NCBI GenBank assembly: GCA_030068145.1
Contig: JAPJBO010000233.1
Coordinates: 205,961 to 269,960 of the forward strand
DNA length: 64,000 nucleotides
From: Diplonema papillatum
Taxonomy: Eukaryota > Euglenozoa > Diplonemea > Diplonemida > Diplonemidae
Direction: 5' to 3'
In this document: one piece after another, positions 11,772-52,350 of the stretch
Position numbering within the stretch: position 1 is the stretch's first letter
How the letters are laid out: each line of letters opens with the position of its first letter
Notes under the pieces: generated by a model
What the model was told of the DNA's origin: nothing
What the model saw: the letters and a program-made list of their open reading frames with translations, nothing else
Databases searched by the model: none
Position numbers and translations under genes: made by a program

Positions 11772-12062
11772 CACGGTGCACCAGTCATTTGAAAAGCAGC
11801 GTAATGACTAGTCATATTACTACTGAAAAGTGCTTACTGCTGTTTTTTGACGTGACTAGTCCTATTACTACTGAAAAGTGCTTACTACTGTTTTGACGTG
11901 ACTAGTCGTGGTACTACTTGAAGAGTGCTTACTACTGCAGGAGTAAGAATGACTACTGCAGTAGTCATTCTTACTACTGACAGTAGTCATATGACTAGTA
12001 AGATTTATGACTAGTAAGATCAGTAGTAAGTGACTAGTAAATGGCATGAATTGTGCACCGTG
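11772..12062. mobile_element. Foldback/MITE-like element, 291 bp
   Basis: The ends are a perfect 10-bp inverted repeat, CACGGTGCAC (11772-11781) and GTGCACCGTG (12053-12062). The left half has three direct units containing ACTAGTC..TACTACTGAAAAGTGCTTACT. The centre is a perfect 32-bp palindrome at 11943-11974, and ACTAGT motifs recur to the right end. There is no coding capacity. The structure predicts a strong cruciform. Confidence 0.8.
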
Positions 12063-12395
12063 GACGTGTTCCCGTGGCCATCGCTACTGCGCTGACCATT
12101 CCCGACGTGGGTAAGGTTTCAACAGCAGAATGCTACGTAATATTACGGAATATTTTGACCGGGGGAACCCCGACGGAGGCTGGAAGGAAAAACAACAACC
12201 GCCAAGTTGGCCTCTTTCGCTGACTGCTTGCGCCCGGGCTGAAGCCAGATGTTACCATGTGTTTCGTTTGGGCTTCAGCACCACCTCCCCGTGCCTACAT
12301 TTTGCCCCCCGCCATTTGCCTCGACTCACCCGGTCAAGTGCTGGGCGAGTGGCGCCAAAAGACAAGAAATCTTTGCGGGCCAACGCTCTCAGACT

Positions 12396-12440
12396 GATCG
12401 ATGCAGCTTATCTCCGCAGATTCTTTGCATTTTAACCCAA
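12396..12440 (+). repeat. 3' tail remnant of the second LINE family
   Basis: The stretch containing CAGATTCTTTGCATT matches the 3' end of the LINE at 60880-60912. Only the tail remains, consistent with extreme 5' truncation during target-primed reverse transcription. Confidence 0.6.
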
Positions 12441-12862
12441 ACTCAGGCTGGCTTTCAGGACCTGGCCGGCAGGTGTGGTATGCTGGGCGAGCAGAGTCTC
12501 GGAACAGGATTCGAAACTGAGGTGGTGACGCCGAGTTTTGCACAGCTGGTCAGGCCCAGCACATTGCACAGCGAGAGCTTGCCACATCCTCGGGGAGATG
12601 TGCCACCCGTGCACAGACAAGACGGGTTTCGGGTTGGGGTGAGGCGTTCCTCAGCTTTTGAAAAAAGGTTGCTGCAGGTAACCCTGCCCGCAAGATCATT
12701 GCCCGAGATATCAATTCTGGAACAGAGGATGCTGACAGGCAACTTGATGAAGCACCTTTCCAGACTTTACCCGAGAGCTCCGATGGCAATGGTCAAAATC
12801 TGGAAAACTTGGCCACGATCTGGAATAGACGGTACAAGGAGGTATGCGGTGGGTGAGCACAC

Positions 12863-13281
12863 CGAACTCTGGAAGATGCGGAGAGATTCGACTTCGTCCG
12901 GCAGCTTCGGCAGGTGCAAGCGGTTCTTGAGCCCAGGGCCCGTCGGGCTCGCAGCCGGCGTCGACGACCGTATGGTGGTGAAGGCGGCGCCGGTGTGGTC
13001 CTTCGCGATGCACAGCCGGGTCCTCGTCGGCAGCTTCGGGACGGCCTCCTGCATCCACGACCCGAGGGCGCCTGCCGAGGCTGCGCCGAGGAGGGCCCCG
13101 GCCGTGCTGGGGAGCTTCGCGTGCCTGTTCAAGATGGGCTGCTGGACGCTTTCATCTTCGACGACCGTCACCTCCGCCGACTTCGGGATCTCGAACCAGC
13201 AAAGGCCGTCGTTCTCGCTCGGAAACATCACTTCCGGGCCCGAGTCGATGGAGCCAAGAGACGAGTGATCCGGGTCCGACA
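12863..13281 (-). CDS. Hypothetical exon (A), possibly first visible exon of the membrane-protein gene
   Basis: An open frame of about 140 residues is bounded by an acceptor (CACGCAG before 13281, next to a (CA)n tract) and a donor (TCG|GTGTGC after 12863). The product is soluble in character, begins SDPDHSSLGSIDSGPE and has a Gly/Ala-rich segment (residues 60-75). No family is recognised. A second possible donor at 12770 would leave phase 2, which does not fit exon B, whereas the chosen donor is phase 0. Membership of the same gene as exons B and C is inferred only from strand, spacing and phase. The upstream exon has not been found; retroelements lie immediately upstream. Confidence 0.45.
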
Positions 13282-13285
13282 CTGC

Positions 13286-13305
13286 GTGTGTGTGTGTGTG
13301 TGTGT

Positions 13306-13347
<42 letters not shown>
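13286..13347. repeat. (TG)n microsatellite at the 3' end of LINE A
   Basis: About 62 bases of TG. On the minus strand it is a (CA)n tract following the 3' untranslated region of LINE A and preceding the splice acceptor of exon A. Confidence 0.95.
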
Positions 13348-15736
<2,389 letters not shown>

Positions 15737-15942
15737 GGAATCCCTATTGTTTCTTCGCTCTTCCTTGCAAAGTCGATAGAACGCGTGTGGCTCCGTTCTG
15801 GCTGTTCCGCTATCTCCCAGCTGTTTATCGCAGCAGAGCAAAGGGAGAAGCATCCGTCGAAGACATGGGGAAAAAGGTGGGGAACAGAACGGGGAAGAAC
15901 ATACAGGTAAAAAAGAGGGCCGTCAGAGACGGCACGAAGGGA

Positions 15943-15979
15943 TTCGAAGGGGGGAGTACAAAAAGGGGGCAAACGGTGG
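15943..15979. repeat. 37-bp direct repeat, 3' copy, of the recombinase retroelement
   Basis: Identical over 37 bases to 19252-19288. It starts TTCGAAGGGGGGAG and ends AAACGGTGG. It lies 29 bases beyond the RT stop codon. Direct repeats just outside the coding region fit the split direct repeats of Ngaro- and VIPER-type elements, although the second repeat of a full A1/B1-A2-B2 set was not found. Confidence 0.9.
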
Positions 15980-16008
15980 AAAATCTGTGCGAACTACTCA
16001 GACGTCTC

Positions 16009-17367
16009 TCATTCTGATGACGCTGAGGTCCGCCTTGAAGAGCCCCTGGTGCCTGACAATCCCCTGATGGCAGGGTCTAAAACTGTCCTCGCCGCTCCCT
16101 CCTCTTCTGGAGTACTCATCTGCGGACATGCGGTCAGTCGAGATCCAAGCAACACGGAAAGACGCGAAGGAAGAAATACTCGAAAACCTTCCGAAAGCCG
16201 CATCGCAGAATCCCAGGAGAGCCGCGAGTTTGCCACGCGGGTCGCCGTCAGTCGGACCCAATCCAAGATTCCGCCGTACGAGCACAGCCAGGTGCCCGTA
16301 GCATAGGATACCCAGACTACGCAGCCTACAACGAACCATGCTTGCCGAACAGTCACATACCGTAACGCCAACAAAGAGAGGATCTTGCCTCTCACTAACC
16401 TGCACCATGTCCCTGGGATACGGAAGAGCCGGTGCACCAGATCCCACTCTATTCCCAAATACTCGATGCGCCGTTGCGGGATGATGACGCTCTTGCTGGC
16501 GTTGATCTCGACGTCCGCGCGTCTGCATCGATCCAAAACGTATCGTACCCTGTCCGAACACTCTTCGCGCGAGGTGCCAAGAACAATGACGTCATCGTAA
16601 CACGCCGCGCCATCCGCCAAAGCGGCACCCATCAGAGCCTCCGTCGACCGCTGCGCAATGACAGGCGCCCAAGCCCAACCCATGGGCATCCTCTTCCAAC
16701 TATACCACGAGCTGACACGGAAGACAAAATACGAGCTCACGTGCTCGTCCAGCGGGAACTGATGAAAGTAGCCGCGAAAATCAATTTTCGCGGCCCACGT
16801 GTACTTCGACAGTATCAGGCGATTGAGCGAGAGTGGATCAGGGAGCTTGAAACGTGGGGGTTTCGACATCGCCAGATTCACGGGCCGACCGTCGACTATC
16901 AACCTGCGGATCAGCGGATCTTTCTTCGGAACATCGAAAAGCGACACCACGGCCCGAACAGGATCTCTCCTTTTCTTTTTATCGGCGACCCCGTGATCGA
17001 GACATTTCTGAACGTGTTGGGCAGCTAGGTTCGTGAGCGAGCCGGGCAGCGGGAGCGACGTCAGTACGGCTGCCTTAAAGGACACACTGCCTGACAACAT
17101 GTCCAGAATCGAGGGATCGCGACCAAGTTCTCTCATCATGCGACTGAGCACGTCTAGGCGCACGACGCCGGTTGGAAAATCGTCGAGTTGCGCGCGCGGA
17201 TCGTTACGGTGGCCATCAGAGCGGCGGGTGGGCGTCAGGACGGTTGCGGTCACCAGAGAACCGACCTGCGGTACGAGGCCGTTGTAGATCTTCTCGAGGA
17301 TCTCATCAAGGTCACCCCTTGGCAGGTCGTAGTCAGCACCTGCCACACCAAATAGTACGCGTCGCAT
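16009..17367 (-). CDS. Reverse transcriptase of the recombinase retroelement
   Basis: 452 residues from the ATG at 17367, which is 20 bases after the recombinase stop. The open frame continues upstream but only as an overlap shadow of the recombinase ORF. RT motifs are in order: PKKDPLIRRLIVDGRPVN (147-164), motif A KIDFRGYFHQF with Asp196, motif B RMPMGWAWAP (226-235), motif C CYDDVIVLG with Asp258/Asp259, and YLGIEWD. A connection-like region follows, but there is no room for a full RNase H before the TGA. These features match the RTs of DIRS-like elements. It would copy the element's RNA. Expression may rely on reinitiation or frameshifting after the first ORF. Confidence 0.85.
   Translation of the reverse strand: MRRVLFGVAGADYDLPRGDLDEILEKIYNGLVPQVGSLVTATVLTPTRRSDGHRNDPRAQLDDFPTGVVRLDVLSRMMRELGRDPSILDMLSGSVSFKAAVLTSLPLPGSLTNLAAQHVQKCLDHGVADKKKRRDPVRAVVSLFDVPKKDPLIRRLIVDGRPVNLAMSKPPRFKLPDPLSLNRLILSKYTWAAKIDFRGYFHQFPLDEHVSSYFVFRVSSWYSWKRMPMGWAWAPVIAQRSTEALMGAALADGAACYDDVIVLGTSREECSDRVRYVLDRCRRADVEINASKSVIIPQRRIEYLGIEWDLVHRLFRIPGTWCRLVRGKILSLLALRYVTVRQAWFVVGCVVWVSYATGTWLCSYGGILDWVRLTATRVANSRLSWDSAMRLSEGFRVFLPSRLSVLLGSRLTACPQMSTPEEEGAARTVLDPAIRGLSGTRGSSRRTSASSE
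16020..16170 (-). pseudogene. RNase H C-terminal remnant in a different frame from the RT
   Basis: In the frame shifted relative to the RT ORF, the minus strand near 16075-16130 reads AWISTDRMSADEYSRR. This resembles the W(I/V)..(D/E)xNxADxxSR end of the RNase H domain that follows RT in DIRS-like elements. The catalytic Asp/Glu blocks expected upstream are absent from all frames in the short space available. I read this as an internal deletion plus frameshift. It is a short match and could be fortuitous. Confidence 0.4.
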
Positions 17368-17387
17368 GATGGCGTCGTCTTTCTGCG

Positions 17388-19250
17388 CTATTGAAGGGGT
17401 GCAAGCGTCAGCGGCTTGTCCCTCACGTCTGACGGCGGTACAGTCATCATGTATCGCCGTGTCGTCCGGGAGTCCGCGTGTCGAAGAAGCTGCTGAAGGC
17501 CGTCGCGATCGACACCGCTTCTTTCCAGCTCTTGCGTGGCGCCCCTTCGGAAACTGTGCATCGCAGCTCCGTGGGGCATTGCCTCCCTGATCCGATGCAG
17601 CGAGCGTTGATAAGACGCCTGCGACTCTGCAAAAAGCGGGCCCGACCGCGTCTGTCGCGCCAGACGTACTAACCTCGCGGTTAGCGGACCCGGTGGCAGG
17701 TACTCGGGTGGCGAGTGGGCCTTTGCCTGCTTTTCCTTCAGGTATATCTGCAGGCCAACCGTTTCGGCATCCGCGGCCCCGGCGTTCTCGACTTCGGTCA
17801 CGTCCCCTGCCGTCAGGACTCGCACATCGGGAACCCGAGCGCGAGATAGCCAAACCGTCGCCACCATCGCGGCCTCGCGAGTGTGTGTCCTTGCCTCCAG
17901 TTTGGCGACAACCTCCCGGACCTCCTCGAGCCGCAACGGCAGCGCTTGACGTGGTCGGACCATGACCGACAGCCTCTGCAAGGCTTTTGACGTCTGCTGC
18001 ACCGCCCGGGTCCTCACGCCCCTCACGCCGCGATCGGCGAGAGCTGTCATCAGGCGGGACAAATAGTTTCGAACGGTGGCCGGCTTCGCGCTCCCAAGTC
18101 GACTCCAAACAAAGCGCACAAGGGCGGTATCGACCGGCGTGTCCGGTGCCTCCTTCTCGGCGAAGCTTTGAAACTGCGCCACCAACCGCTCGGCTTCTGA
18201 CGTGGACCGCTGCCCAGTCGCAAAAAGGTGTGCCGAATCGGGAGGAATCCGCTCCTTCAGCATCCGGCCCAACTCGTGGCCGTCGCGCACCAAGAACAAT
18301 TGGTGCTCGAGCTCGGCGCGCGCTCGCGCGTCTCCGGCGCGCGCTCCGTTGCTGTTCGACCTTGGACGGTTGCCGTAGTAGCGGCTGCCGGGGGTGCGGC
18401 TGGCAGAGGCGCGGTTCCCGTATGAGTGGCCGCGAAAGGACCCCGCTCGGCGTGAGCCGTCTCGCGCTTCTGGTTGGGCGGCTTGCTTCGACTTCACGGT
18501 CTTCTTCTCGGCTGCCTTCTCCGCCGCTGCTCTCGCCTTCTTGAGCCGTTGCGACAAGACCGGTGTCTCGTCGAGAGTTGCTGCGAAGGCATCGGCCGCT
18601 GCGTAACCTTGACTGGAGCGCACGCGCCAAAATTCCAACATCTCCCCTGCGCGCTCTAACACGTCCTCCAGGGGATCGTCGCCGATGAGGGCCGCCGACA
18701 GCTCCATCACGTGCCTGTAAGCCGTCGCGCCGGGGATGTCGGTAGGCGCTCGCCTCTCGAGTTCCGTCACCAAGGCATCGCGAAAAACCGGACCCTGATC
18801 GGCGTATGGCACCCACGTGCTGCCATTCAGTGCCACCTCCTTCAACGTGAGTGTCACGTTGTCCCGCGCTTCAGCGTCGACCGCCTCCTCTGCACTCGGA
18901 GGTCGCTGTTCCTGCTTTGCCCCGTGCAGCTTCCAGAAACGTGCCAGCTGCACGTGGGGGACCGCCTCGAACACGGATGTCCCCAGAACCACGATGGTGG
19001 CACCGTCGGGGCCTACGTTGGTCACGACTGCGACCTTCTCCCCGTCGGTGATCTGGACTCCAAAGTCCAGACCTTCCATCCTGGTCGGAGCACGAGAGGC
19101 AGCGACCGGCGCATCCTGTGCCTCCAAGCGGTTTACCTTGTCGGTGAGGCCGGCGAGTAGGATCATCATCTGATCAAGCCGCTTCGAGACCTCATCTACG
19201 GGGAGCGGGGCGGAAGTCGTTGCGACGGGCGTGGTTGAGTTCTTCGTCAT
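17388..19250 (-). CDS. Gag-like and tyrosine recombinase polyprotein
   Basis: 620 residues. The ATG at 19250 sits directly next to the 37-bp direct repeat. Residues 18-46 look like a coiled coil, and residues about 268-318 are Arg/Gly/Ser/Asn-rich, as in an RNA-binding gag tail. Residues about 320-440 look like the helical core-binding domain of tyrosine recombinases. The catalytic domain carries Arg472 (RARVPDVRVLTAGDV), His565 and Arg568 (HSFR), His591 (LLRHAD) and Tyr600 (RRYM), which is the full R-H-R-H-Y set. The recombinase would integrate a circular DNA copy. No zinc knuckle is seen. Fusion of gag and recombinase upstream of the RT is unusual; YR retroelements normally place it last. 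Confidence 0.85.
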   Translation of the reverse strand: MTKNSTTPVATTSAPLPVDEVSKRLDQMMILLAGLTDKVNRLEAQDAPVAASRAPTRMEGLDFGVQITDGEKVAVVTNVGPDGATIVVLGTSVFEAVPHVQLARFWKLHGAKQEQRPPSAEEAVDAEARDNVTLTLKEVALNGSTWVPYADQGPVFRDALVTELERRAPTDIPGATAYRHVMELSAALIGDDPLEDVLERAGEMLEFWRVRSSQGYAAADAFAATLDETPVLSQRLKKARAAAEKAAEKKTVKSKQAAQPEARDGSRRAGSFRGHSYGNRASASRTPGSRYYGNRPRSNSNGARAGDARARAELEHQLFLVRDGHELGRMLKERIPPDSAHLFATGQRSTSEAERLVAQFQSFAEKEAPDTPVDTALVRFVWSRLGSAKPATVRNYLSRLMTALADRGVRGVRTRAVQQTSKALQRLSVMVRPRQALPLRLEEVREVVAKLEARTHTREAAMVATVWLSRARVPDVRVLTAGDVTEVENAGAADAETVGLQIYLKEKQAKAHSPPEYLPPGPLTARLVRLARQTRSGPLFAESQASYQRSLHRIREAMPHGAAMHSFRRGATQELERSGVDRDGLQQLLRHADSRTTRRYMMTVPPSDVRDKPLTLAPLQ

Positions 19251-19251
19251 T

Positions 19252-19288
19252 TTCGAAGGGGGGAGTACAAAAAGGGGGCAAACGGTGG
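19252..19288. repeat. 37-bp direct repeat, 5' copy, of the recombinase retroelement
   Basis: Identical to 15943-15979. It ends two bases upstream of the gag/recombinase start codon. Beyond it, 19289-19417 contains short hairpins (for example GCGCCGAAGGCGC) and a GGATTCCAAC motif that is the inverse of GTTGGAATCC at 15734-15743. Confidence 0.9.
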
Positions 19289-19413
19289 GGCCTGCGTTTG
19301 TCAGTTTTTGCTTACCCCTCCAACCTCGCTTTTGGCGAGTGGATAATATGAGGAGTTCGCTCAGAAACGTAAGGATTCCAACTTGACGCGCCGAAGGCGC
19401 TCAAGCAAGCTTG

Positions 19414-19678
<265 letters not shown>

Positions 19679-19680
<2 letters not shown>

Positions 19681-22600
19681 ACGGACCTGTTTTAACGTGG
19701 TGCCTCCCTTCACGAAAGTACGACCACGCTCAGATTAGGCTAGGTGACGGCCGATGCACCCCCGGGCTGGGAGTGGGGGCCTCCATTCGCTCTCCTGTTT
19801 GCGTGATGCTTTGTGCAGCAGCTGGCTAATGCTTCGTTTTCAGCCACACAATCGCCGCAACGTCCTAGTCTGTGAGCTGTGCAGAAGTGCATCCGGGGCC
19901 TTAGACCATCCGATCCGTGATGATGCTGCTTGAGGCGACAGCAGGTCTCCGCCGGTAGACGCTTTTTTACGCACTCACTGCATCGCGGCTTTTTGTGGAG
20001 CGAGCAAACCACTCCAGGGCGGGAAGTGTTAGCAGCGCCTTCTGGGGCCTCGCACGGGGGGGCACCTTTGCGCGGGTCAGTGCTTGAACCCCTTTCGGCC
20101 TCTTCCGTTCTGCCTTTCCAGTCGGGTTTTCCCTGTGTCCATCCTGCCGGGTAAGCCTCCTCTGGCAAGAAGGTTGCGGCCCAATTCAGGTGTGGCGGGT
20201 AAGGGCTGCTCTCATGTTCGTCCGCGATTCCCGCCTGCGCGTGTTCGCGTATCCTCACGATGATGCCTTCTGTCGCCTCTGACAGCTGCGCTCGTCGGGA
20301 GACGCCCCGTACAACCGTCCCTCCCAGGGATGTCAGCACGGTGGAGGAGTACTCATGGCCATAGAACCACGGCTGTCCCGTCACCTTCTTGTACGCCTTC
20401 CCCATCTCAACGAGGCTAAGCGCTTTGCCCAAGGCGGACCGGCGAAAGTCGGCCAGCATCTTCTCTTGCCTTCGAGGAGTCGGCCGCTGGCGCTGCACCA
20501 AGTCCATGGCGGCGTTACTCAGGGCATCAGCGTCCGTGTTCCTCTCGCGCTTGACGTGCTCGATGCGCACTGTCATCCGTCGCTGCAGGGAAGAAACCAT
20601 TCTGGCAGCGCGTGTCTGGTATGGCTTGAGCTCCTCGGAACATGCCAGGCGTCGCAAAAGCTGCCCCACTACCAGTGCCGAGTCCCCCCGCACCGTACAC
20701 TGCGTGCCGTCCGCATCGTTCGCTTCGTTCAGCAGATGCAGGCCCGCTAGCACCGCTTCATACTCTGCCACATTATTGCTGCGCACGGTCGGCAGCGGCA
20801 GTATTACTTCCGACACCTTGACGCCGTCTCGGTACATTACCGCCCCTGCGCCAGCAACGGCGAAGGCGGTTCCGTTCGCTCTCGCCCCACCATCGAAGCA
20901 CACAAGCAACCTGCTGTCGCCCATTTCCCCATCCGCTAGCGTTGTGCGAGCTGCTGTCACCTTGCCTGTCTGTGCTTGAGGTACTGCTGTATAGTACCTG
21001 CTTTTGAGGTCAGGGAGCCGCTGTCCGGTGTGCATTTCGAACTCTACAGCTAACTCGATGAAGCTGATGCCCAGCTCGTCGTGTCCCGGGGGTGCCCATT
21101 TCACCTGCCGCAGCCAGTCGGTGAACGCCATCCACATTTCCCGTCCGTATTTCCATTTCGTTGTCACGGCGGATGGTGCAATGAAAGGGACTGCAAGTCG
21201 GCAGGGTTCAGTTGGTCTCCAGCCTCGCGGGTAGCTCTCTGTCCTGTGATGCCGGGCTGACCTGTCGAGCAGGCCGTCGGCACCCTGGCGTTCCCTCAGC
21301 ACTTCGACAAAGAACAGTTGTAGCCGCTTCACTACATGCCGCCTTTTCTCCTTTTCTGCCGGCAGCACGGAGATGCTTTCGTCTATCTGAGGGGCTGGGG
21401 CTATCCCGCACAAGCGCAGACACGGGGGCCAGTTTACCTGCATGGTCCTTATGTCTTCGTACTTCGCGCGCAAGTGCTCCCAAGCGGGGCAGCTCCAGAA
21501 AAGGTGATCCACCGTTTCTCGTTCCTCCGTATTGCAGTATAGACAGCTTTCTTCACCGGCCCCTGTTCGTCCAGCCGCCGGCGTGGCTCCCACAATCACT
21601 GATTTCAGCATGCCGGCTTGATACGCGGTGAGTGGGGAATCGTGCATCTCCAGCAGGTGCCGGGTTGTCTGGTAATCCACCCCGTCCCGCACTCCCCCGA
21701 AGTCTCCTCCCCGCCTTGCCGCGAGCTGAGCCATTTCGCGTAGTCTCAAAGCGTATCGCAGGTCGTGCTGTAGAAGCTTCGTGTTGTCCTGTGCCGCTGC
21801 ATCATGCACTACCTCGTCTCCGGCTTCGTTCGTGTAGGCGATGCTGGTTGGTGCCACCCATCGCCACCCGAGTCCGTCTAGCGCTTCTTTGAAGAAGGCG
21901 AAAGGTCCATGCAATGTCGCAAGCGAGTCGCTGTGCTCCCACGCTGTCTGTGACAGAGATCTCGCGGACTCCCACTTCTTGAGTTGCACTGCCCAGGTGG
22001 TGATTCTTCTGTATGCCGGCACAACTACCGGGTCGAGTCGGTGCCCATGATGTAGGATATGTAGGACCGCCTCTTGAGCTCGGCGCGGCGGCCCAGTCCA
22101 CATCGCCTCCGTGAACAATCTTCTCAGGCGCACGCTGTCCCGCTTCGTCATTCCCGATACTGCTGCACCGTAGTACCGTTTAGCTCCCGCTGACATGCTG
22201 ACCACGAGGTCCTTCGCTTCGCCTGGCAGCGGGAGGCAAGCTGCCCTTTTCAGCACCCGCTCAGCTTCGGAGTTCCTCTCCACAATCCGTTTCGACGGCC
22301 GAATTACCTCCCCCGGTGGCACCTTCTCTGTGGTTAGCATCACGCCGAGAACGTCGAATGTCACCCGCCTTTGTATACCTTCTTGTCGCCCGTTGTTCAC
22401 TGCTGTGCCGTCGCTTTCCGCATAATCAAGGGTTTGCGGGGTGTCCGACGCCGTCGTGAAAAAATGCGACTTTTTCTGCGTGCAGACTTTCATCCCGGTC
22501 AGCCCGGCGAACATTCCTGACCGCCTGGCTGCCTCCTCTAAATCGGCAAACGTCTTCAGCATTGCATACACGTCATCGACGTACGATAGCGGAATCGCCG

Positions 22601-23880
22601 CTTCGATGTCCGCTACGTGTCGCATCCAGACACTGATGATGACGTTAATGAGAATGACACTCAGCGGGCATCCCTGCATTATCCCGTTCGTAGGCACGAA
22701 GCCTTCTCCAACCGTTGCTCCCACCCGGAAGTGACGCCGCATGTTGGTGTAGGCTGCCCTCAGAGTCCGCAGTACAACCTCGTTAAACCCCAGCTCCTCG
22801 GCCAGCTTAAAGGCTACTTCGATCGGTACCGAGTCAAAGCACTTTTGGAAGTCCAGCGCTAGGCCAAAGAGTGGCTCTCCCGTTAGGTGCGCCTCTTCGA
22901 TAAGCGCTGCCAAGTGCCATACCAGGTCGTCTGTTCCATGTTCCTTCCGACATCCATGCAGGCCGCTCGGCGCAATCTCGTCCATCCACGCGAGTGCTGC
23001 CTTCGCCCTTACGGCTGCCCATATCCGGTACAGGACAGGCGTTATCGAAATCGGTCGTTGCGACAAGGGGTCCCCGTTGCTTTCGGGCTTCGGAAGCAGG
23101 TGAATGATCGCATGCATTAGCTGTTCCGGCCATCGTCCCTCGCTTTCCACTGCGTTCATGGCATCTGCCATGAGTTGTAGCTCGTGCACGCGCCATCCAT
23201 GAAGTCCGGGGGACGATGTCTTTTTCATCTTCTTGAGTGCCGCGTCAACATCAGCAGCACTGATGGGCTCGCATTCCATCGCATGCGGCGCGGGTAGATA
23301 CCGTGCGTACTGCGACTTGAATGCCTCCCACTCTGGCTCCGGTTGGTCCGCATACTTTTGAAATATACCTCCCCAGGCGCCGGGCCCTCTCAGCATCTCA
23401 TCGATCTCCGTCGGGCACGCGGTTAAGGTGCCATCCTGTCGTCGCAGAAATGCCGTTGGGATCCCTTGCTGTCCAGCTAGAAACCGATATATATCGCCTT
23501 TTTCTGGGCCACTCCAAGCCTTCTGCATTCGATCCTTCCAGAGGCGTGAGCGCTGCGTCTTCAGCGCGGCAATCGCTTCACGTTGGGATCCTTCCAGCCT
23601 CTCTACCGCCGCCACGAGTTCCTGCAACTCATCGCTGCTTCCGATGTGTGCGAGCTGCGGTAAGAACTCTCCCACATTTCTTCTCCGCAACGCGTTTCGT
23701 GCGTTGCGTTCTGCTACCGTCATCGCACCCACTTGTCCGCTACCGAGCCTCTGCCTTGCCTCCGCGACCACTGAGCGTAGCATTCCAAGAACTCTATCGC
23801 GTTGCTTCGTGGACCAATTCATAGCTCCTCGCGTCGTGCATGCCTGCCTCGCAGATGAGTGCGCCTCCCGTGTGCGGTAG
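19679..23880 (-). mobile_element. LINE B: non-LTR retrotransposon with RT and archaeal-type RNase H
   Basis: The best-preserved LINE in the window. The 3' end abuts a (CA)n tract. The 5' end is at about 23880, where sequence switches to a dispersed repeat also seen at 2677, marking the insertion boundary. No apurinic endonuclease is encoded before the RT, so the copy is either 5'-truncated or belongs to a lineage with a C-terminal nuclease. Combined RT plus archaeal-type RNase H is known from plant L1 elements and some oomycete LINEs. Confidence 0.85.
19740..23822 (-). CDS. LINE ORF2-like protein: RT, zf-RVT, RNase H, Cys/His tail
   Basis: 1,360 residues, intact; the frame stays open upstream to about 23880, so the true start may be lost. 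RT motifs: LPKPE..QRPISI (243-260), motif A ALDFQKCFD with Asp324, motif B NGIMQGCPLS (379-388) and motif C SYVDDVY with Asp416/Asp417. A zf-RVT finger spans residues 760-778 (CLYC..HLFWSC). RNase H has Asp977, Glu1020, Asp1047 and Asp1099, a full catalytic set, with FDGGARANG and NNVAEYEA typical of the archaeal type. The last 90 residues hold two CxxH-x4-CxxC..CC..HH units. It would reverse-transcribe its RNA at the target site. No apurinic endonuclease is present. Ends GGASAVT, as does LINE A. Confidence 0.9.
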   Translation of the reverse strand: MNWSTKQRDRVLGMLRSVVAEARQRLGSGQVGAMTVAERNARNALRRRNVGEFLPQLAHIGSSDELQELVAAVERLEGSQREAIAALKTQRSRLWKDRMQKAWSGPEKGDIYRFLAGQQGIPTAFLRRQDGTLTACPTEIDEMLRGPGAWGGIFQKYADQPEPEWEAFKSQYARYLPAPHAMECEPISAADVDAALKKMKKTSSPGLHGWRVHELQLMADAMNAVESEGRWPEQLMHAIIHLLPKPESNGDPLSQRPISITPVLYRIWAAVRAKAALAWMDEIAPSGLHGCRKEHGTDDLVWHLAALIEEAHLTGEPLFGLALDFQKCFDSVPIEVAFKLAEELGFNEVVLRTLRAAYTNMRRHFRVGATVGEGFVPTNGIMQGCPLSVILINVIISVWMRHVADIEAAIPLSYVDDVYAMLKTFADLEEAARRSGMFAGLTGMKVCTQKKSHFFTTASDTPQTLDYAESDGTAVNNGRQEGIQRRVTFDVLGVMLTTEKVPPGEVIRPSKRIVERNSEAERVLKRAACLPLPGEAKDLVVSMSAGAKRYYGAAVSGMTKRDSVRLRRLFTEAMWTGPPRRAQEAVLHILHHGHRLDPVVVPAYRRITTWAVQLKKWESARSLSQTAWEHSDSLATLHGPFAFFKEALDGLGWRWVAPTSIAYTNEAGDEVVHDAAAQDNTKLLQHDLRYALRLREMAQLAARRGGDFGGVRDGVDYQTTRHLLEMHDSPLTAYQAGMLKSVIVGATPAAGRTGAGEESCLYCNTEERETVDHLFWSCPAWEHLRAKYEDIRTMQVNWPPCLRLCGIAPAPQIDESISVLPAEKEKRRHVVKRLQLFFVEVLRERQGADGLLDRSARHHRTESYPRGWRPTEPCRLAVPFIAPSAVTTKWKYGREMWMAFTDWLRQVKWAPPGHDELGISFIELAVEFEMHTGQRLPDLKSRYYTAVPQAQTGKVTAARTTLADGEMGDSRLLVCFDGGARANGTAFAVAGAGAVMYRDGVKVSEVILPLPTVRSNNVAEYEAVLAGLHLLNEANDADGTQCTVRGDSALVVGQLLRRLACSEELKPYQTRAARMVSSLQRRMTVRIEHVKRERNTDADALSNAAMDLVQRQRPTPRRQEKMLADFRRSALGKALSLVEMGKAYKKVTGQPWFYGHEYSSTVLTSLGGTVVRGVSRRAQLSEATEGIIVRIREHAQAGIADEHESSPYPPHLNWAATFLPEEAYPAGWTQGKPDWKGRTEEAERGSSTDPRKGAPPCEAPEGAANTSRPGVVCSLHKKPRCSECVKKRLPAETCCRLKQHHHGSDGLRPRMHFCTAHRLGRCGDCVAENEALASCCTKHHANRRANGGPHSQPGGASAVT

Positions 23881-23884
23881 CCGG

Positions 23885-24235
23885 GGCAAGCTCTCTCTGT
23901 GCAATGAGCTTGGCCTGACTAGCTGTTCCAAACTCGTGGTGCAAGCCCGTCCTCGAGTCGGCAGTGCTTACCAGAAGTGGCCCACATAGAACCAGGATTC
24001 TACGTCAGGGTTCAATGAAGTAACCCCGAGCTCACGCCCATTTAAAGTTTGAAAATAGGTCGAGAAGGAAGCGATTTCCCCAATGCCTCTAATCATTCGC
24101 TTTACCCGGCGTAACTCCCGTTTTGGTTCTAGCTATCCTGAGGGAAACTTCGGAGTGAACCAGCTACTCGCTCGCACGGGCGCGAGTCACTTGTCGCCAA
24201 GCATTCTGCAATGCTGACGACTGCCACCCCCCTGT
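23885..24235. repeat. Dispersed repeat (relative of 2672-2870) beside the LINE B 5' junction
   Basis: The match with 2677 starts at GCAAGCTCTC and continues, with an internal difference near 23960-24160, to GCCAAGCATTCTGCAA. Its abrupt start marks the 5' boundary of LINE B. Confidence 0.7.
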
Positions 24236-24356
24236 ATTTTGGAATCCCTTCTGTTTCTTCGCGATTCCTGGGAAGTCGATAGCTCGCCATGTCACTCCGT
24301 TCTCCGCTGAGTGCTACACCGCCTCGGCCCTCAAATAGAGCATTCGCTCTTCTTCC

Positions 24357-24662
24357 CAGGGCTTACGCTCCACGTGTGGAACGTGTGGATTTCCACACGT
24401 TAATTTTTTTTGGATTTTGTTCCCCACGTGTGGATCCACAGGTACCACATGTGGATTTTGATTTATTGGTCCACATTCAGGGGAGTCCCACTAGTGGTCA
24501 AGGCCGCACAGCCAGGTGTCGCCAAGTCCAGTAGCTACGCTATTTCTTTTGCCGTCGCACCTGCAGCAGGGGGAAAGGTTTTTTTTTCCCCCTCGAATCT
24601 TAAGCGCCCACACGTGGACCACACGTATTTTCTCTGAGACCGAAAACGGAGCGTAAGCCCTG
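24357..24662. mobile_element. MITE-like element with 15-bp terminal inverted repeats
   Basis: CAGGGCTTACGCTCC (24357-24371) and its perfect inverse (24648-24662) bound 306 bases containing several CCACACGTGTGG-like palindromes. The right half matches 6155-6252. There is no coding capacity. Confidence 0.75.
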
Positions 24663-46340: not shown

Positions 46341-49300
46341 TCACAATGCACAGCAATGCACAGCAATGCACAGCAATGCACAGCAATGCACAGCAATGCA
46401 CAGCAATGCACAGCAACGCACAGCAACGCACAGCAACGCACAGCAACGCACAGCAACGCACAGCAACGCACAGCAACGCACAGCAACGCACAGCAACGCA
46501 CAGCAACGCACAGCAACGCACAGCAATGCACAGCAATGCACAGCAATGCACAGCAATGCACAGCAATGCACAGCAATGCACAGCAATGCACAGCAATGCA
46601 CAGCAATGCACAGCAATGCACAGCAATGCACAGCAATGCACAGCAATGCACAGCAATGCACAGCAATGCACAGCAATGCACAGCAATGCACAGCAATGCA
46701 CAGCAATGCACAGCAATGCACAGCAATGCACAGCAATGCACAGCAATGCACAGCAATGCACAGCAATGCACAGCAATGCACAGCAATGCACAGCAATGCA
46801 CAGCAATGCACAGCAATGCACAGCAATGCACAGCAATGCACAGCAATGCACAGCAATGCACAGCAATGCACAGCAATGCACAGCAATGCACAGCAATGCA
46901 CAGCAATGCACAGCAATGCACAGCAATGCACAGCAATGCACAGCAATGCACAGCAATGCACAGCAATGCACAGCAATGCACAGCAATGCACAGCAATGCA
47001 CAGCAATGCACAGCAATGCACAGCAATGCACAGCAATGCACAGCAATGCACAGCAATGCACAGCAATGCACAGCAATGCACAGCAATGCACAGCAATGCA
47101 CAGCAATGCACAGCAATGCACAGCAATGCACAGCAATGCACAGCAATGCACAGCAATGCACAGCAATGCACAGCAATGCACAGCAATGCACAGCAATGCA
47201 CAGCAATGCACAGCAATGCACAGCAATGCACAGCAATGCACAGCAATGCACAGCAATGCACAGCAATGCACAGCAATGCACAGCAATGCACAGCAATGCA
47301 CAGCAATGCACAGCAATGCACAGCAATGCACAGCAATGCACAGCAATGCACAGCAATGCACAGCAATGCACAGCAATGCACAGCAATGCACAGCAATGCA
47401 CAGCAATGCACAGCAATGCACAGCAATGCACAGCAATGCACAGCAATGCACAGCAATGCACAGCAATGCACAGCAATGCACAGCAATGCACAGCAATGCA
47501 CAGCAATGCACAGCAATGCACAGCAATGCACAGCAATGCACAGCAATGCACAGCAATGCACAGCAATGCACAGCAATGCACAGCAATGCACAGCAATGCA
47601 CAGCAATGCACAGCAATGCACAGCAATGCACAGCAATGCACAGCAATGCACAGCAATGCACAGCAATGCACAGCAATGCACAGCAATGCACAGCAATGCA
47701 CAGCAATGCACAGCAATGCACAGCAATGCACAGCAATGCACAGCAATGCACAGCAATGCACAGCAATGCACAGCAATGCACAGCAATGCACAGCAATGCA
47801 CAGCAATGCACAGCAATGCACAGCAATGCACAGCAATGCACAGCAATGCACAGCAATGCACAGCAATGCACAGCAATGCACAGCAATGCACAGCAATGCA
47901 CAGCAATGCACAGCAATGCACAGCAATGCACAGCAATGCACAGCAATGCACAGCAATGCACAGCAATGCACAGCAATGCACAGCAATGCACAGCAATGCA
48001 CAGCAATGCACAGCAATGCACAGCAATGCACAGCAATGCACAGCAATGCACAGCAATGCACAGCAATGCACAGCAATGCACAGCAATGCACAGCAATGCA
48101 CAGCAATGCACAGCAATGCACAGCAATGCACAGCAATGCACAGCAATGCACAGCAATGCACAGCAATGCACAGCAATGCACAGCAATGCACAGCAATGCA
48201 CAGCAATGCACAGCAATGCACAGCAATGCACAGCAATGCACAGCAATGCACAGCAATGCACAGCAATGCACAGCAATGCACAGCAATGCACAGCAATGCA
48301 CAGCAATGCACAGCAATGCACAGCAATGCACAGCAATGCACAGCAATGCACAGCAATGCACAGCAATGCACAGCAACGCACAGCAATGCACAGCAATGCA
48401 CAGCAATGCACAGCAATGCACAGCAATGCACAGCAATGCACAGCAATGCACAGCAATGCACAGCAATGCACAGCAATGCACAGCAATGCACAGCAATGCA
48501 CAGCAATGCACAGCAATGCACAGCAATGCACAGCAATGCACAGCAATGCACAGCAATGCACAGCAATGCACAGCAATGCACAGCAATGCACAGCAATGCA
48601 CAGCAATGCACAGCAATGCACAGCAATGCACAGCAATGCACAGCAATGCACAGCAATGCACAGCAATGCACAGCAATGCACAGCAATGCACAGCAATGCA
48701 CAGCAATGCACAGCAATGCACAGCAATGCACAGCAATGCACAGCAATGCACAGCAATGCACAGCAATGCACAGCAATGCACAGCAATGCACAGCAATGCA
48801 CAGCAATGCACAGCAATGCACAGCAATGCACAGCAATGCACAGCAATGCACAGCAATGCACAGCAATGCACAGCAATGCACAGCAATGCACAGCAATGCA
48901 CAGCAATGCACAGCAATGCACAGCAATGCACAGCAATGCACAGCAATGCACAGCAATGCACAGCAATGCACAGCAATGCACAGCAATGCACAGCAATGCA
49001 CAGCAATGCACAGCAATGCACAGCAATGCACAGCAATGCACAGCAATGCACAGCAATGCACAGCAATGCACAGCAATGCACAGCAATGCACAGCAATGCA
49101 CAGCAATGCACAGCAATGCACAGCAATGCACAGCAATGCACAGCAATGCACAGCAATGCACAGCAATGCACAGCAATGCACAGCAATGCACAGCAATGCA
49201 CAGCAATGCACAGCAATGCACAGCAATGCACAGCAATGCACAGCAATGCACAGCAATGCACAGCAATGCACAGCAATGCACAGCAATGCACAGCAATGCA

Positions 49301-52300
49301 CAGCAATGCACAGCAATGCACAGCAATGCACAGCAATGCACAGCAATGCACAGCAATGCACAGCAATGCACAGCAATGCACAGCAATGCACAGCAATGCA
49401 CAGCAATGCACAGCAATGCACAGCAATGCACAGCAATGCACAGCAATGCACAGCAATGCACAGCAATGCACAGCAATGCACAGCAATGCACAGCAATGCA
49501 CAGCAATGCACAGCAATGCACAGCAATGCACAGCAATGCACAGCAATGCACAGCAATGCACAGCAATGCACAGCAATGCACAGCAATGCACAGCAATGCA
49601 CAGCAATGCACAGCAATGCACAGCAATGCACAGCAATGCACAGCAATGCACAGCAATGCACAGCAATGCACAGCAATGCACAGCAATGCACAGCAATGCA
49701 CAGCAATGCACAGCAATGCACAGCAATGCACAGCAATGCACAGCAATGCACAGCAATGCACAGCAATGCACAGCAATGCACAGCAATGCACAGCAATGCA
49801 CAGCAATGCACAGCAATGCACAGCAATGCACAGCAATGCACAGCAATGCACAGCAATGCACAGCAATGCACAGCAATGCACAGCAATGCACAGCAATGCA
49901 CAGCAATGCACAGCAATGCACAGCAATGCACAGCAATGCACAGCAATGCACAGCAATGCACAGCAATGCACAGCAATGCACAGCAATGCACAGCAATGCA
50001 CAGCAATGCACAGCAATGCACAGCAATGCACAGCAATGCACAGCAATGCACAGCAATGCACAGCAATGCACAGCAATGCACAGCAATGCACAGCAATGCA
50101 CAGCAATGCACAGCAATGCACAGCAATGCACAGCAATGCACAGCAATGCACAGCAATGCACAGCAATGCACAGCAATGCACAGCAATGCACAGCAATGCA
50201 CAGCAATGCACAGCAATGCACAGCAATGCACAGCAATGCACAGCAATGCACAGCAATGCACAGCAATGCACAGCAATGCACAGCAATGCACAGCAATGCA
50301 CAGCAATGCACAGCAATGCACAGCAATGCACAGCAATGCACAGCAATGCACAGCAATGCACAGCAATGCACAGCAATGCACAGCAATGCACAGCAATGCA
50401 CAGCAATGCACAGCAATGCACAGCAATGCACAGCAATGCACAGCAATGCACAGCAATGCACAGCAATGCACAGCAATGCACAGCAATGCACAGCAATGCA
50501 CAGCAATGCACAGCAATGCACAGCAATGCACAGCAATGCACAGCAATGCACAGCAATGCACAGCAATGCACAGCAATGCACAGCAATGCACAGCAATGCA
50601 CAGCAATGCACAGCAATGCACAGCAATGCACAGCAATGCACAGCAATGCACAGCAATGCACAGCAATGCACAGCAATGCACAGCAATGCACAGCAATGCA
50701 CAGCAATGCACAGCAATGCACAGCAATGCACAGCAATGCACAGCAATGCACAGCAATGCACAGCAATGCACAGCAATGCACAGCAATGCACAGCAATGCA
50801 CAGCAATGCACAGCAATGCACAGCAATGCACAGCAATGCACAGCAATGCACAGCAATGCACAGCAATGCACAGCAATGCACAGCAATGCACAGCAACGCA
50901 CAGCAATGCACAGCAATGCACAGCAATGCACAGCAATGCACAGCAATGCACAGCAATGCACAGCAATGCACAGCAATGCACAGCAATGCACAGCAATGCA
51001 CAGCAATGCACAGCAATGCACAGCAATGCACAGCAATGCACAGCAATGCACAGCAATGCACAGCAATGCACAGCAATGCACAGCAATGCACAGCAATGCA
51101 CAGCAATGCACAGCAATGCACAGCAATGCACAGCAATGCACAGCAATGCACAGCAATGCACAGCAATGCACAGCAATGCACAGCAATGCACAGCAATGCA
51201 CAGCAATGCACAGCAATGCACAGCAATGCACAGCAATGCACAGCAATGCACAGCAATGCACAGCAATGCACAGCAATGCACAGCAATGCACAGCAATGCA
51301 CAGCAATGCACAGCAATGCACAGCAATGCACAGCAATGCACAGCAATGCACAGCAATGCACAGCAATGCACAGCAATGCACAGCAATGCACAGCAATGCA
51401 CAGCAATGCACAGCAATGCACAGCAATGCACAGCAATGCACAGCAATGCACAGCAATGCACAGCAATGCACAGCAATGCACAGCAATGCACAGCAATGCA
51501 CAGCAATGCACAGCAATGCACAGCAATGCACAGCAATGCACAGCAATGCACAGCAATGCACAGCAATGCACAGCAATGCACAGCAATGCACAGCAATGCA
51601 CAGCAATGCACAGCAATGCACAGCAATGCACAGCAATGCACAGCAATGCACAGCAATGCACAGCAATGCACAGCAATGCACAGCAATGCACAGCAATGCA
51701 CAGCAATGCACAGCAATGCACAGCAATGCACAGCAATGCACAGCAATGCACAGCAATGCACAGCAATGCACAGCAATGCACAGCAATGCACAGCAATGCA
51801 CAGCAATGCACAGCAATGCACAGCAATGCACAGCAATGCACAGCAATGCACAGCAATGCACAGCAATGCACAGCAATGCACAGCAATGCACAGCAATGCA
51901 CAGCAATGCACAGCAATGCACAGCAATGCACAGCAATGCACAGCAATGCACAGCAATGCACAGCAATGCACAGCAATGCACAGCAATGCACAGCAATGCA
52001 CAGCAATGCACAGCAATGCACAGCAATGCACAGCAATGCACAGCAATGCACAGCAATGCACAGCAATGCACAGCAATGCACAGCAATGCACAGCAATGCA
52101 CAGCAATGCACAGCAATGCACAGCAATGCACAGCAATGCACAGCAATGCACAGCAATGCACAGCAATGCACAGCAATGCACAGCAATGCACAGCAATGCA
52201 CAGCAACGCACAGCAACGCACAGCAACGCACAGCAACGCACAGCAACGCACAGCAACGCACAGCAACGCACAGCAACGCACAGCAACGCACAGCAACGCA

Positions 52301-52350
52301 CAGCAACGCACAGCAACGCACAGCAACGCACAGCAACGCACAGCAATGAA
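46341..52350. repeat. 6-kb satellite, about 599 copies of a 10-bp unit
   Basis: The unit CAGCAATGCA is repeated without indels from 46351 to 52340. A CAGCAACGCA variant forms a block of 11 at 46411-46520, a block of 14 at 52201-52340, and two singletons at 48371 and 50891. Because 10 bases is not a multiple of three and the unit lacks stops on either strand, all six frames stay open for about 2,000 codons. The very long ORFs are artefacts. Confidence 0.98.

What the first reader, a model, noticed from the sequence alone, without database searches (positions are those of the whole stretch)
15943..19288. Retroelement with tyrosine recombinase upstream of the RT
The element encodes gag and a tyrosine recombinase in one ORF (Arg472, His565, Arg568, His591, Tyr600), followed by the RT (YDD motif), within identical 37-bp direct repeats. 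DIRS, PAT and Ngaro elements place RT-RNase H before the recombinase. The reverse order is described for trypanosomatid VIPER elements. If this host is not a kinetoplastid, as its intron-bearing genes suggest, this may be a new lineage of recombinase retroelements or a wide extension of VIPER. The fusion of gag with the recombinase is a further difference.
Basis: partly seen in the sequence, partly recalled or inferred. Interest (0 to 1): 0.8.

Follow-up and report, generated by a model that had tools for sequence, protein, structure and literature searches.

The report
VIPER-like retroelement in TG microsatellites
A broken copy of a jumping element that copies itself through RNA and inserts with a phage-type recombinase sits in a TG-repeat tract of the marine flagellate Diplonema papillatum; the type is known from its trypanosome cousins, but here its families appear to home to simple two-letter repeats.

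Summary
In detail: on the minus strand a gag-like region plus tyrosine recombinase (YR) precedes a reverse transcriptase (RT), between identical 37-bp repeats. But those repeats are not the ends, and the stressed fusion belongs to this copy alone. The element runs about 15736-19417 with a (TG)n array on each side. Fifteen of 15 other copies aligned across the gag/YR junction carry 56 or 62 more bases, and the copies read there have separate gag and YR ORFs. A 355-bp loss removed the RNase H core. The host is Diplonema papillatum, a diplonemid (sister group of kinetoplastids). The family has gag / YR / RT-RNase H and, in 6 of 21 loci, split direct repeats A1-body-B1-A2-B2: the VIPER/TATE anatomy. 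The genome paper already mentions TATE-like ORFs. New as far as my searches go: the target. Termini abut (TG)n genome-wide; a family with 38% RT identity and a similar 5' terminus abuts (AG)n. Best reading: a VIPER-like lineage whose YR inserts circular DNA into dinucleotide microsatellites, with a target switch between families. Clade membership by tree could not be tested, and no empty site was found.

The parts
15603..15735 (.). (TG)n array, 66.5 copies, abutting the 3' end of the element
   Evidence: junction read
15736..15979 (-). B unit (3' terminal segment plus 37-bp repeat), begins TTGGAATCCC; the core T/TT at the edge is ambiguous by 1-2 bases
15943..15979 (.). 37-bp direct repeat, copy 1 (internal, inside B)
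16012..17367 (-). RT ORF, cut short; RVT_1 match at residues 146-307; C-terminal tail out of frame after the deletion
16178..16181 (.). point of a 355-bp loss that removes the RNase H core (355 bp present in 10 of 11 loci aligned on both sides, 342 net in the eleventh)
17391..18338 (-). YR domain (R, K, H-x-x-R, H, Y), fused here to gag
18342..18347 (.). point of the private 56-bp deletion that joins gag and YR in one frame
18343..19250 (-). gag-like region, Met at 19250, one base from the 37-bp repeat; its start is 318 bp shorter than in 14 of the loci compared
19252..19288 (.). 37-bp direct repeat, copy 2 (internal, inside A)
19252..19417 (-). A unit (5' terminal segment), ends GCAAGCTTGCTAG; GGATTCCAA at 19373 is the reverse complement of the B terminus
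19418..19678 (.). (GT)n array, 131.5 copies, abutting the 5' end of the element

Best explanation
An internally deleted copy of a VIPER-like tyrosine-recombinase retroelement of Diplonema papillatum. Other copies encode gag-like, YR and RT-RNase H ORFs and carry split direct repeats (5' A1, body, B1-A2-B2 3'). Proposed cycle: the RNA is copied by RT-RNase H; the repeated A/B segments let a DNA circle form with an A|B junction (seen here only as A2|B1 junctions inside integrated copies); the YR recombines that junction, GCTAG-GT-TGGAATCC, with a (TG)n microsatellite through a short shared GT/TG core and leaves (TG)n-B-body-A-(TG)n. A distant family does the same with (AG)n. Shown: domains, order, repeats, termini and their genomic context. 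Inferred: the circle, the strand exchange, and that the arrays were there before the insertion.
For: RT (1.9e-18), RNase H-like (7e-6) and Phage_integrase (1.9e-6) matches (PHROG integrase 4e-15). YR-RT order in 66 of 70 RT matches. Split direct repeats in 6 of 21 loci, 100% identical over 166 and 242 bp in the locus compared with itself. B terminus against TG in 14 of 15 loci, A1 against TG in 15 of 19, none of 8 internal A2|B1 junctions with an array. Genome-wide: 66 of 79 listed non-satellite A termini run into TG against 0 of 24,000 background windows; B terminus after TG 157 against 1. Families with 54-58% RT identity also lie in TG, one with 38% in AG.
Against: No empty site was found for the two insertions tested, so prior existence of the array is unproven. 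Three untruncated A1 ends (L009, L010, L022) are followed only by a short or degenerate TG stretch. In the AG-type terminus class 28 of 65 readable places are followed neither by an AG run of 8 nor by their own left end. No circle or transcript was observed. No VIPER or TATE sequence was at hand, so kinship rests on anatomy.
Confidence: 0.72

Rival explanations
1. The (TG)n arrays are not the target: they belong to the element or are made by it (a terminal dinucleotide that expands after insertion), or elements only survive in repeat-rich regions.
For: No empty site found. The termini themselves begin GTG/TG, so slippage could lengthen them. Arrays reach about 130 units.
Against: Eight of 8 internal A2|B1 junctions have no array between A and B, so it is not carried by the element. 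Array starts of 24 bp or more number 2459, more than the 600 A termini found, so many arrays seem to lack this terminus. A LINE family also abuts (TG)n. Arrays lie on both sides in the same orientation.
Confidence: 0.2
2. A separate YR-retroelement lineage that reached the VIPER gene order and split direct repeats independently of VIPER/TATE.
For: No VIPER/TATE sequences to compare; no relatives found in viral contigs, prokaryote contigs (81) or plasmids (65), none of which is a collection of eukaryotes. Structural features of YR elements are known to be homoplasious (PMC4157794, passages).
Against: Host is in the sister group of the only hosts known for VIPER/TATE; order, three ORFs and repeats agree; the genome authors saw TATE similarity (PMC10161547).
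Confidence: 0.2
3. A chance or nested juxtaposition of a Crypton-like YR element and an unrelated RT element.
For: None beyond the single window copy; YRs of retroelements and Cryptons are thought to be related (PMC6681497, section 13).
Against: 66 of 70 RT matches, at 38-100% identity, have the YR directly upstream at gaps of 24-186 bp; 4 without are fragments or contig edges as far as the coordinates show. RT and YR identities fall in parallel.
Confidence: 0.01

Closest known systems
VIPER (trypanosomatids, Bodo saltans)
   Same: gag-like / YR / RT-RNase H order, split direct repeats A1 ... B1 A2 B2, solo A2-B2 relatives (SIRE) like the solo B-A units here (PMC6681497; PMC12278014; here)
   Different: Diplonemid host; termini in (TG)n or (AG)n arrays; no tree kinship tested
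TATE (trypanosomatids)
   Same: Same anatomy; insertion in a tandem simple repeat, the telomeric hexamer (PMC6681497, section 3); tandem copies
   Different: Dinucleotide arrays in place of telomere repeats
Ngaro / PAT
   Same: YR, RT-RNase H, split direct repeats
Nimavirus tyrosine recombinases
   Same: Eukaryotic YR associated with insertion in a short tandem repeat, (TAACC)n (PMC10871703, passages)
   Different: Large DNA virus of crustaceans, not a retroelement; pentanucleotide motif

Membership tests
VIPER-like (VIPER/TATE) | YR and RT-RNase H in one element | tested here: met
   the window copy itself has lost the RNase H core
VIPER-like (VIPER/TATE) | Order gag-like, YR, RT/RH on one strand | tested here: met
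VIPER-like (VIPER/TATE) | Three ORFs, the YR and RT/RH ORFs overlapping | tested here: inconclusive
   Three ORFs; the open RT frame runs upstream through the YR frame, but the first RT Met lies after the YR stop
VIPER-like (VIPER/TATE) | Split direct repeats A1 ... B1 A2 B2 | tested here: met
   6 of 21 loci; not in the window copy
VIPER-like (VIPER/TATE) | No methyltransferase domain | tested here: met
   No such Pfam match in the five ORFs scanned
VIPER-like (VIPER/TATE) | No target-site duplication | tested here: inconclusive
   A duplication cannot be seen inside a dinucleotide array
VIPER-like (VIPER/TATE) | RT groups with VIPER and TATE in a tree | not testable with these tools
   No VIPER or TATE sequences at hand
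TATE in the strict sense | Insertion in telomeric hexamer repeats | tested here: not met
   Dinucleotide arrays
DIRS / PAT / Ngaro | RT-RNase H before the YR | tested here: not met
DIRS / PAT | Methyltransferase domain | tested here: not met
Crypton | YR element without RT | tested here: not met

The most novel reading that the evidence does not exclude
A diplonemid radiation of YR retroelements whose recombinase uses dinucleotide microsatellites as attachment sites, the target switching between (TG)n and (AG)n by change of the A|B junction while the flanking terminal sequence stays similar. VIPER-like YRs as a class would then be short-tandem-repeat integrases (hexamer in TATE, dinucleotides here), and their solo units would seed satellites.
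Probability: 0.4. Interest if true: 0.65.

Novelty: new variant of a known kind. Interest (0 to 1): 0.45.

Why it matters
It carries the VIPER/TATE type from kinetoplastids to their sister group with complete anatomy, which bears on how old the type is in Euglenozoa. It also offers a natural series for how a retroelement tyrosine recombinase chooses its target: related families that abut TG or AG repeats. Simple repeats are usually put down to replication slippage; here many long TG arrays carry the ends of mobile elements, so microsatellites act as a niche for mobile DNA.

Tried and rejected
Rejected: nested insertion of unrelated YR and RT elements; the gag-YR fusion as a family trait; the 37-bp repeats as the ends.

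Led nowhere: relatives in viral contigs, prokaryote contigs (81) and plasmids (65), none found. NCBIfam gave only matches below cut-off. PDB by sequence: two RT matches, 'Enzymatic polyprotein' 8r0s at 5.7e-7 and an RT/RNase H 4ol8 at 2.7e-5, and one weak integrase for the YR, 0.062. Gag: no credible family; the best Pfam match is below its cut-off. Rfam on 12000-24500: none. AlphaFold models unusable (mean pLDDT 33 and 42), so no fold search was made. Empty-site tests for two insertions: none found. Paper searches aimed at microsatellite-targeting YR retroelements: none evident from the listings; most listed papers were not opened.

Limits of counts: one search scored 36 of 244 candidates, 76 of 2423, 124 of 916, so copy numbers are lower bounds. 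One search used all 77 RT rows and the first 99 of 128 YR rows. One search used the 100 listed of 600 places (21 from one satellite array set aside, 79 kept) and the 65 places that showed letters, of 162. Patterns 60 and 61 end in G/T and A/G, so other flanks are undercounted about twofold. The reversed control is no null, because a reversed array is an array.

Full report
WHAT IS THERE. The finding lies on the minus strand. The 37-bp repeats are identical but are not the ends. Sequence shared with other copies continues outward to about 15736 (TTGGAATCCC) and 19417 (GCAAGCTTGCTAG), and each end meets a long (TG)n array, 15603-15735 and 19418-19678.

HOST. The window lies in contig C233 of a 271,365,524-bp assembly in 2910 contigs. 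A core of the euglenozoan spliced leader (recalled) occurs 625 times against 0 for the reversed control. The diplonemid leader exon as I recall it is complete in 4 of 8 loci looked at; three others hold the match on the other strand and were not turned, and one differs upstream of the core. Contig C1 is 1,009,103 bp long, exactly the length given for contig tig00022654_12 of Diplonema papillatum in PMC10161547 (passages); that paper gives 280,293,864 bp in 6181 contigs, so the set here is not identical in extent. I take the host to be that species, a diplonemid.

THE FAMILY. Twenty further loci were fetched. In the copies read frame by frame (L009, L012, L019; ORF scan of 20 loci) gag-like and YR are separate ORFs. 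Fifteen of 15 copies that align across the gag/YR junction carry 56 (4 loci) or 62 (11 loci) more bases than the window copy; three more (L019-L021) align only in part. The window copy also lacks 355 bp of the RNase H region that 10 of 11 loci aligned on both sides carry (342 net in the eleventh, L025). So the fusion and the truncation are defects of this copy. Uninterrupted RT-RNase H ORFs exist elsewhere, and five copies are 100% identical over 575 aa, which suggests recent spread or recent duplication. At its 5' start the gag of the window's subfamily is 318 bp shorter than in 13 loci compared, and 316 bp shorter than in a fourteenth.

ANATOMY OF THE ENDS. Call A the 166-bp 5' unit and B the 244-bp 3' unit; each contains one 37-bp repeat. 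In 6 of 21 loci (L012, L013, L016, L017, L020, L025) the coding-strand order is A1-body-B1-A2-B2, with an extra B-A unit in L013 and L017. In L012 the copies of A and of B are 100% identical over 166 and 242 bp. These are the split direct repeats described for VIPER and TATE (PMC6681497, section 4). The window copy has one A and one B. A solo B-A unit between two (TG)n arrays occurs in L014, which may be one reason why A termini (600) outnumber scored RT copies (70).

TARGET. Of 15 loci with a B terminus, 14 have TG fraction 0.93 or more in the 30 bp outside; the exception, L026, is a rearranged fragment. Of 19 loci with an A1 end, 15 run into (TG)n; L009 and L010 have only a short GTGTG, L022 a degenerate repeat, and L021 is truncated. 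None of 8 internal A2|B1 junctions has an array. Genome-wide, 66 of 79 listed non-satellite A termini run into at least 12 bp of TG, against 0 of 24,000 windows in 24 kb of unrelated loci. The B terminus after TG occurs 157 times against 1 control. Array starts of 24 bp or more number 2459. Families with 54-58% RT identity also lie in (TG)n: C10 on both sides, C51 on both, C149 and C991 on the 3' side read. The C76 family (38% RT, 40% YR identity) lies in (AG)n on both sides, the right array running to the contig end; its 5' terminus CACCGAAGGTGCTCAAACAAGTTTGCT resembles CGCCGAAGGCGCTCAAGCAAGCTTGCT of the window family. Of 65 readable places with that terminus, 31 run into AG repeats, 6 into their own left end (tandem junctions) and 28 into neither; the background rate for the AG run is 16 of 24,000. 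The AG claim is therefore weaker than the TG claim, although 14 of 18 places of the TAGAG subtype fit it.

MECHANISM. The junction GCTAG-GT-TGGAATCC and the products (TG)n-TTGGAATCC and GCTAG-GTGTG fit a crossover within a GT shared by junction and array; in the C51 family the junction GCTAGTATGGAATCC and its products fit a TG core. GGATTCCAA in A is the reverse complement of the B terminus and gives inverted arms around the junction, as expected of a recombinase site. The circle, the strand exchange and the prior presence of the array are inferred; two empty-site tests found none.

COMPARISON AND NOVELTY. Order, ORFs and repeats are those of VIPER/TATE; the tree test could not be made. The genome paper already counts TATE among the proteins that Diplonema ORFs resemble, under DNA transposons (PMC10161547). 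TATE inserts in the telomeric hexamer (PMC6681497, section 3) and nimavirus YRs are associated with (TAACC)n (PMC10871703), so tandem-repeat targeting by eukaryotic YRs is not new in itself. Dinucleotide targeting by a retroelement YR, and different dinucleotides in related families, did not appear in my searches, which cover open papers only. Papers seen: abstract and sections 3, 4 and 13 of PMC6681497; passages only of PMC10161547, PMC12278014, PMC10871703, PMC4157794, PMC3266345, PMC2663770 and PMC2664479.

Noticed in passing
window 19740-23918 (-) and about 13350-15600 (-): A non-LTR retroelement ORF with RT and RNase H-like domain (RVT_1 3.7e-17, RVT_3 8.8e-9) and a relative cut at its 5' side; both have their 3' end on a (TG)n array, and the joint TG-YTACGGACCTG occurs 31 times in the genome against 0 control. 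TG arrays seem to be shared by two kinds of mobile element.
   Followed up: partly
window 46344-52348: A 6-kb satellite of the 10-bp unit CAATGCACAG, 600 copies, 99% matches.
   Followed up: no
G000:C76:304474-305665: A tandem array of about 58-bp units, each holding the element's A terminus GCAAGCTTGCTAG (21 of the 100 listed places): a satellite that may derive from the retroelement end.
   Followed up: no
L049 (G000:C2170), also G000:C111: Head-to-tail arrays of whole elements (period 4681 bp in C2170; four copies in C111), with B joined directly to A at the junction read.
   Followed up: partly
L029-L032: Complete spliced-leader exon followed by other sequence and, in 3 of these 4, not by GT: they look like reinserted copies of trans-spliced mRNAs.
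   Followed up: no
L012 and L023, left flanks: Coding-like sequence ends in AAG or GAG followed at once by GTGTGTG, as if the TG tract began at an intron's 5' splice site.
   Followed up: no
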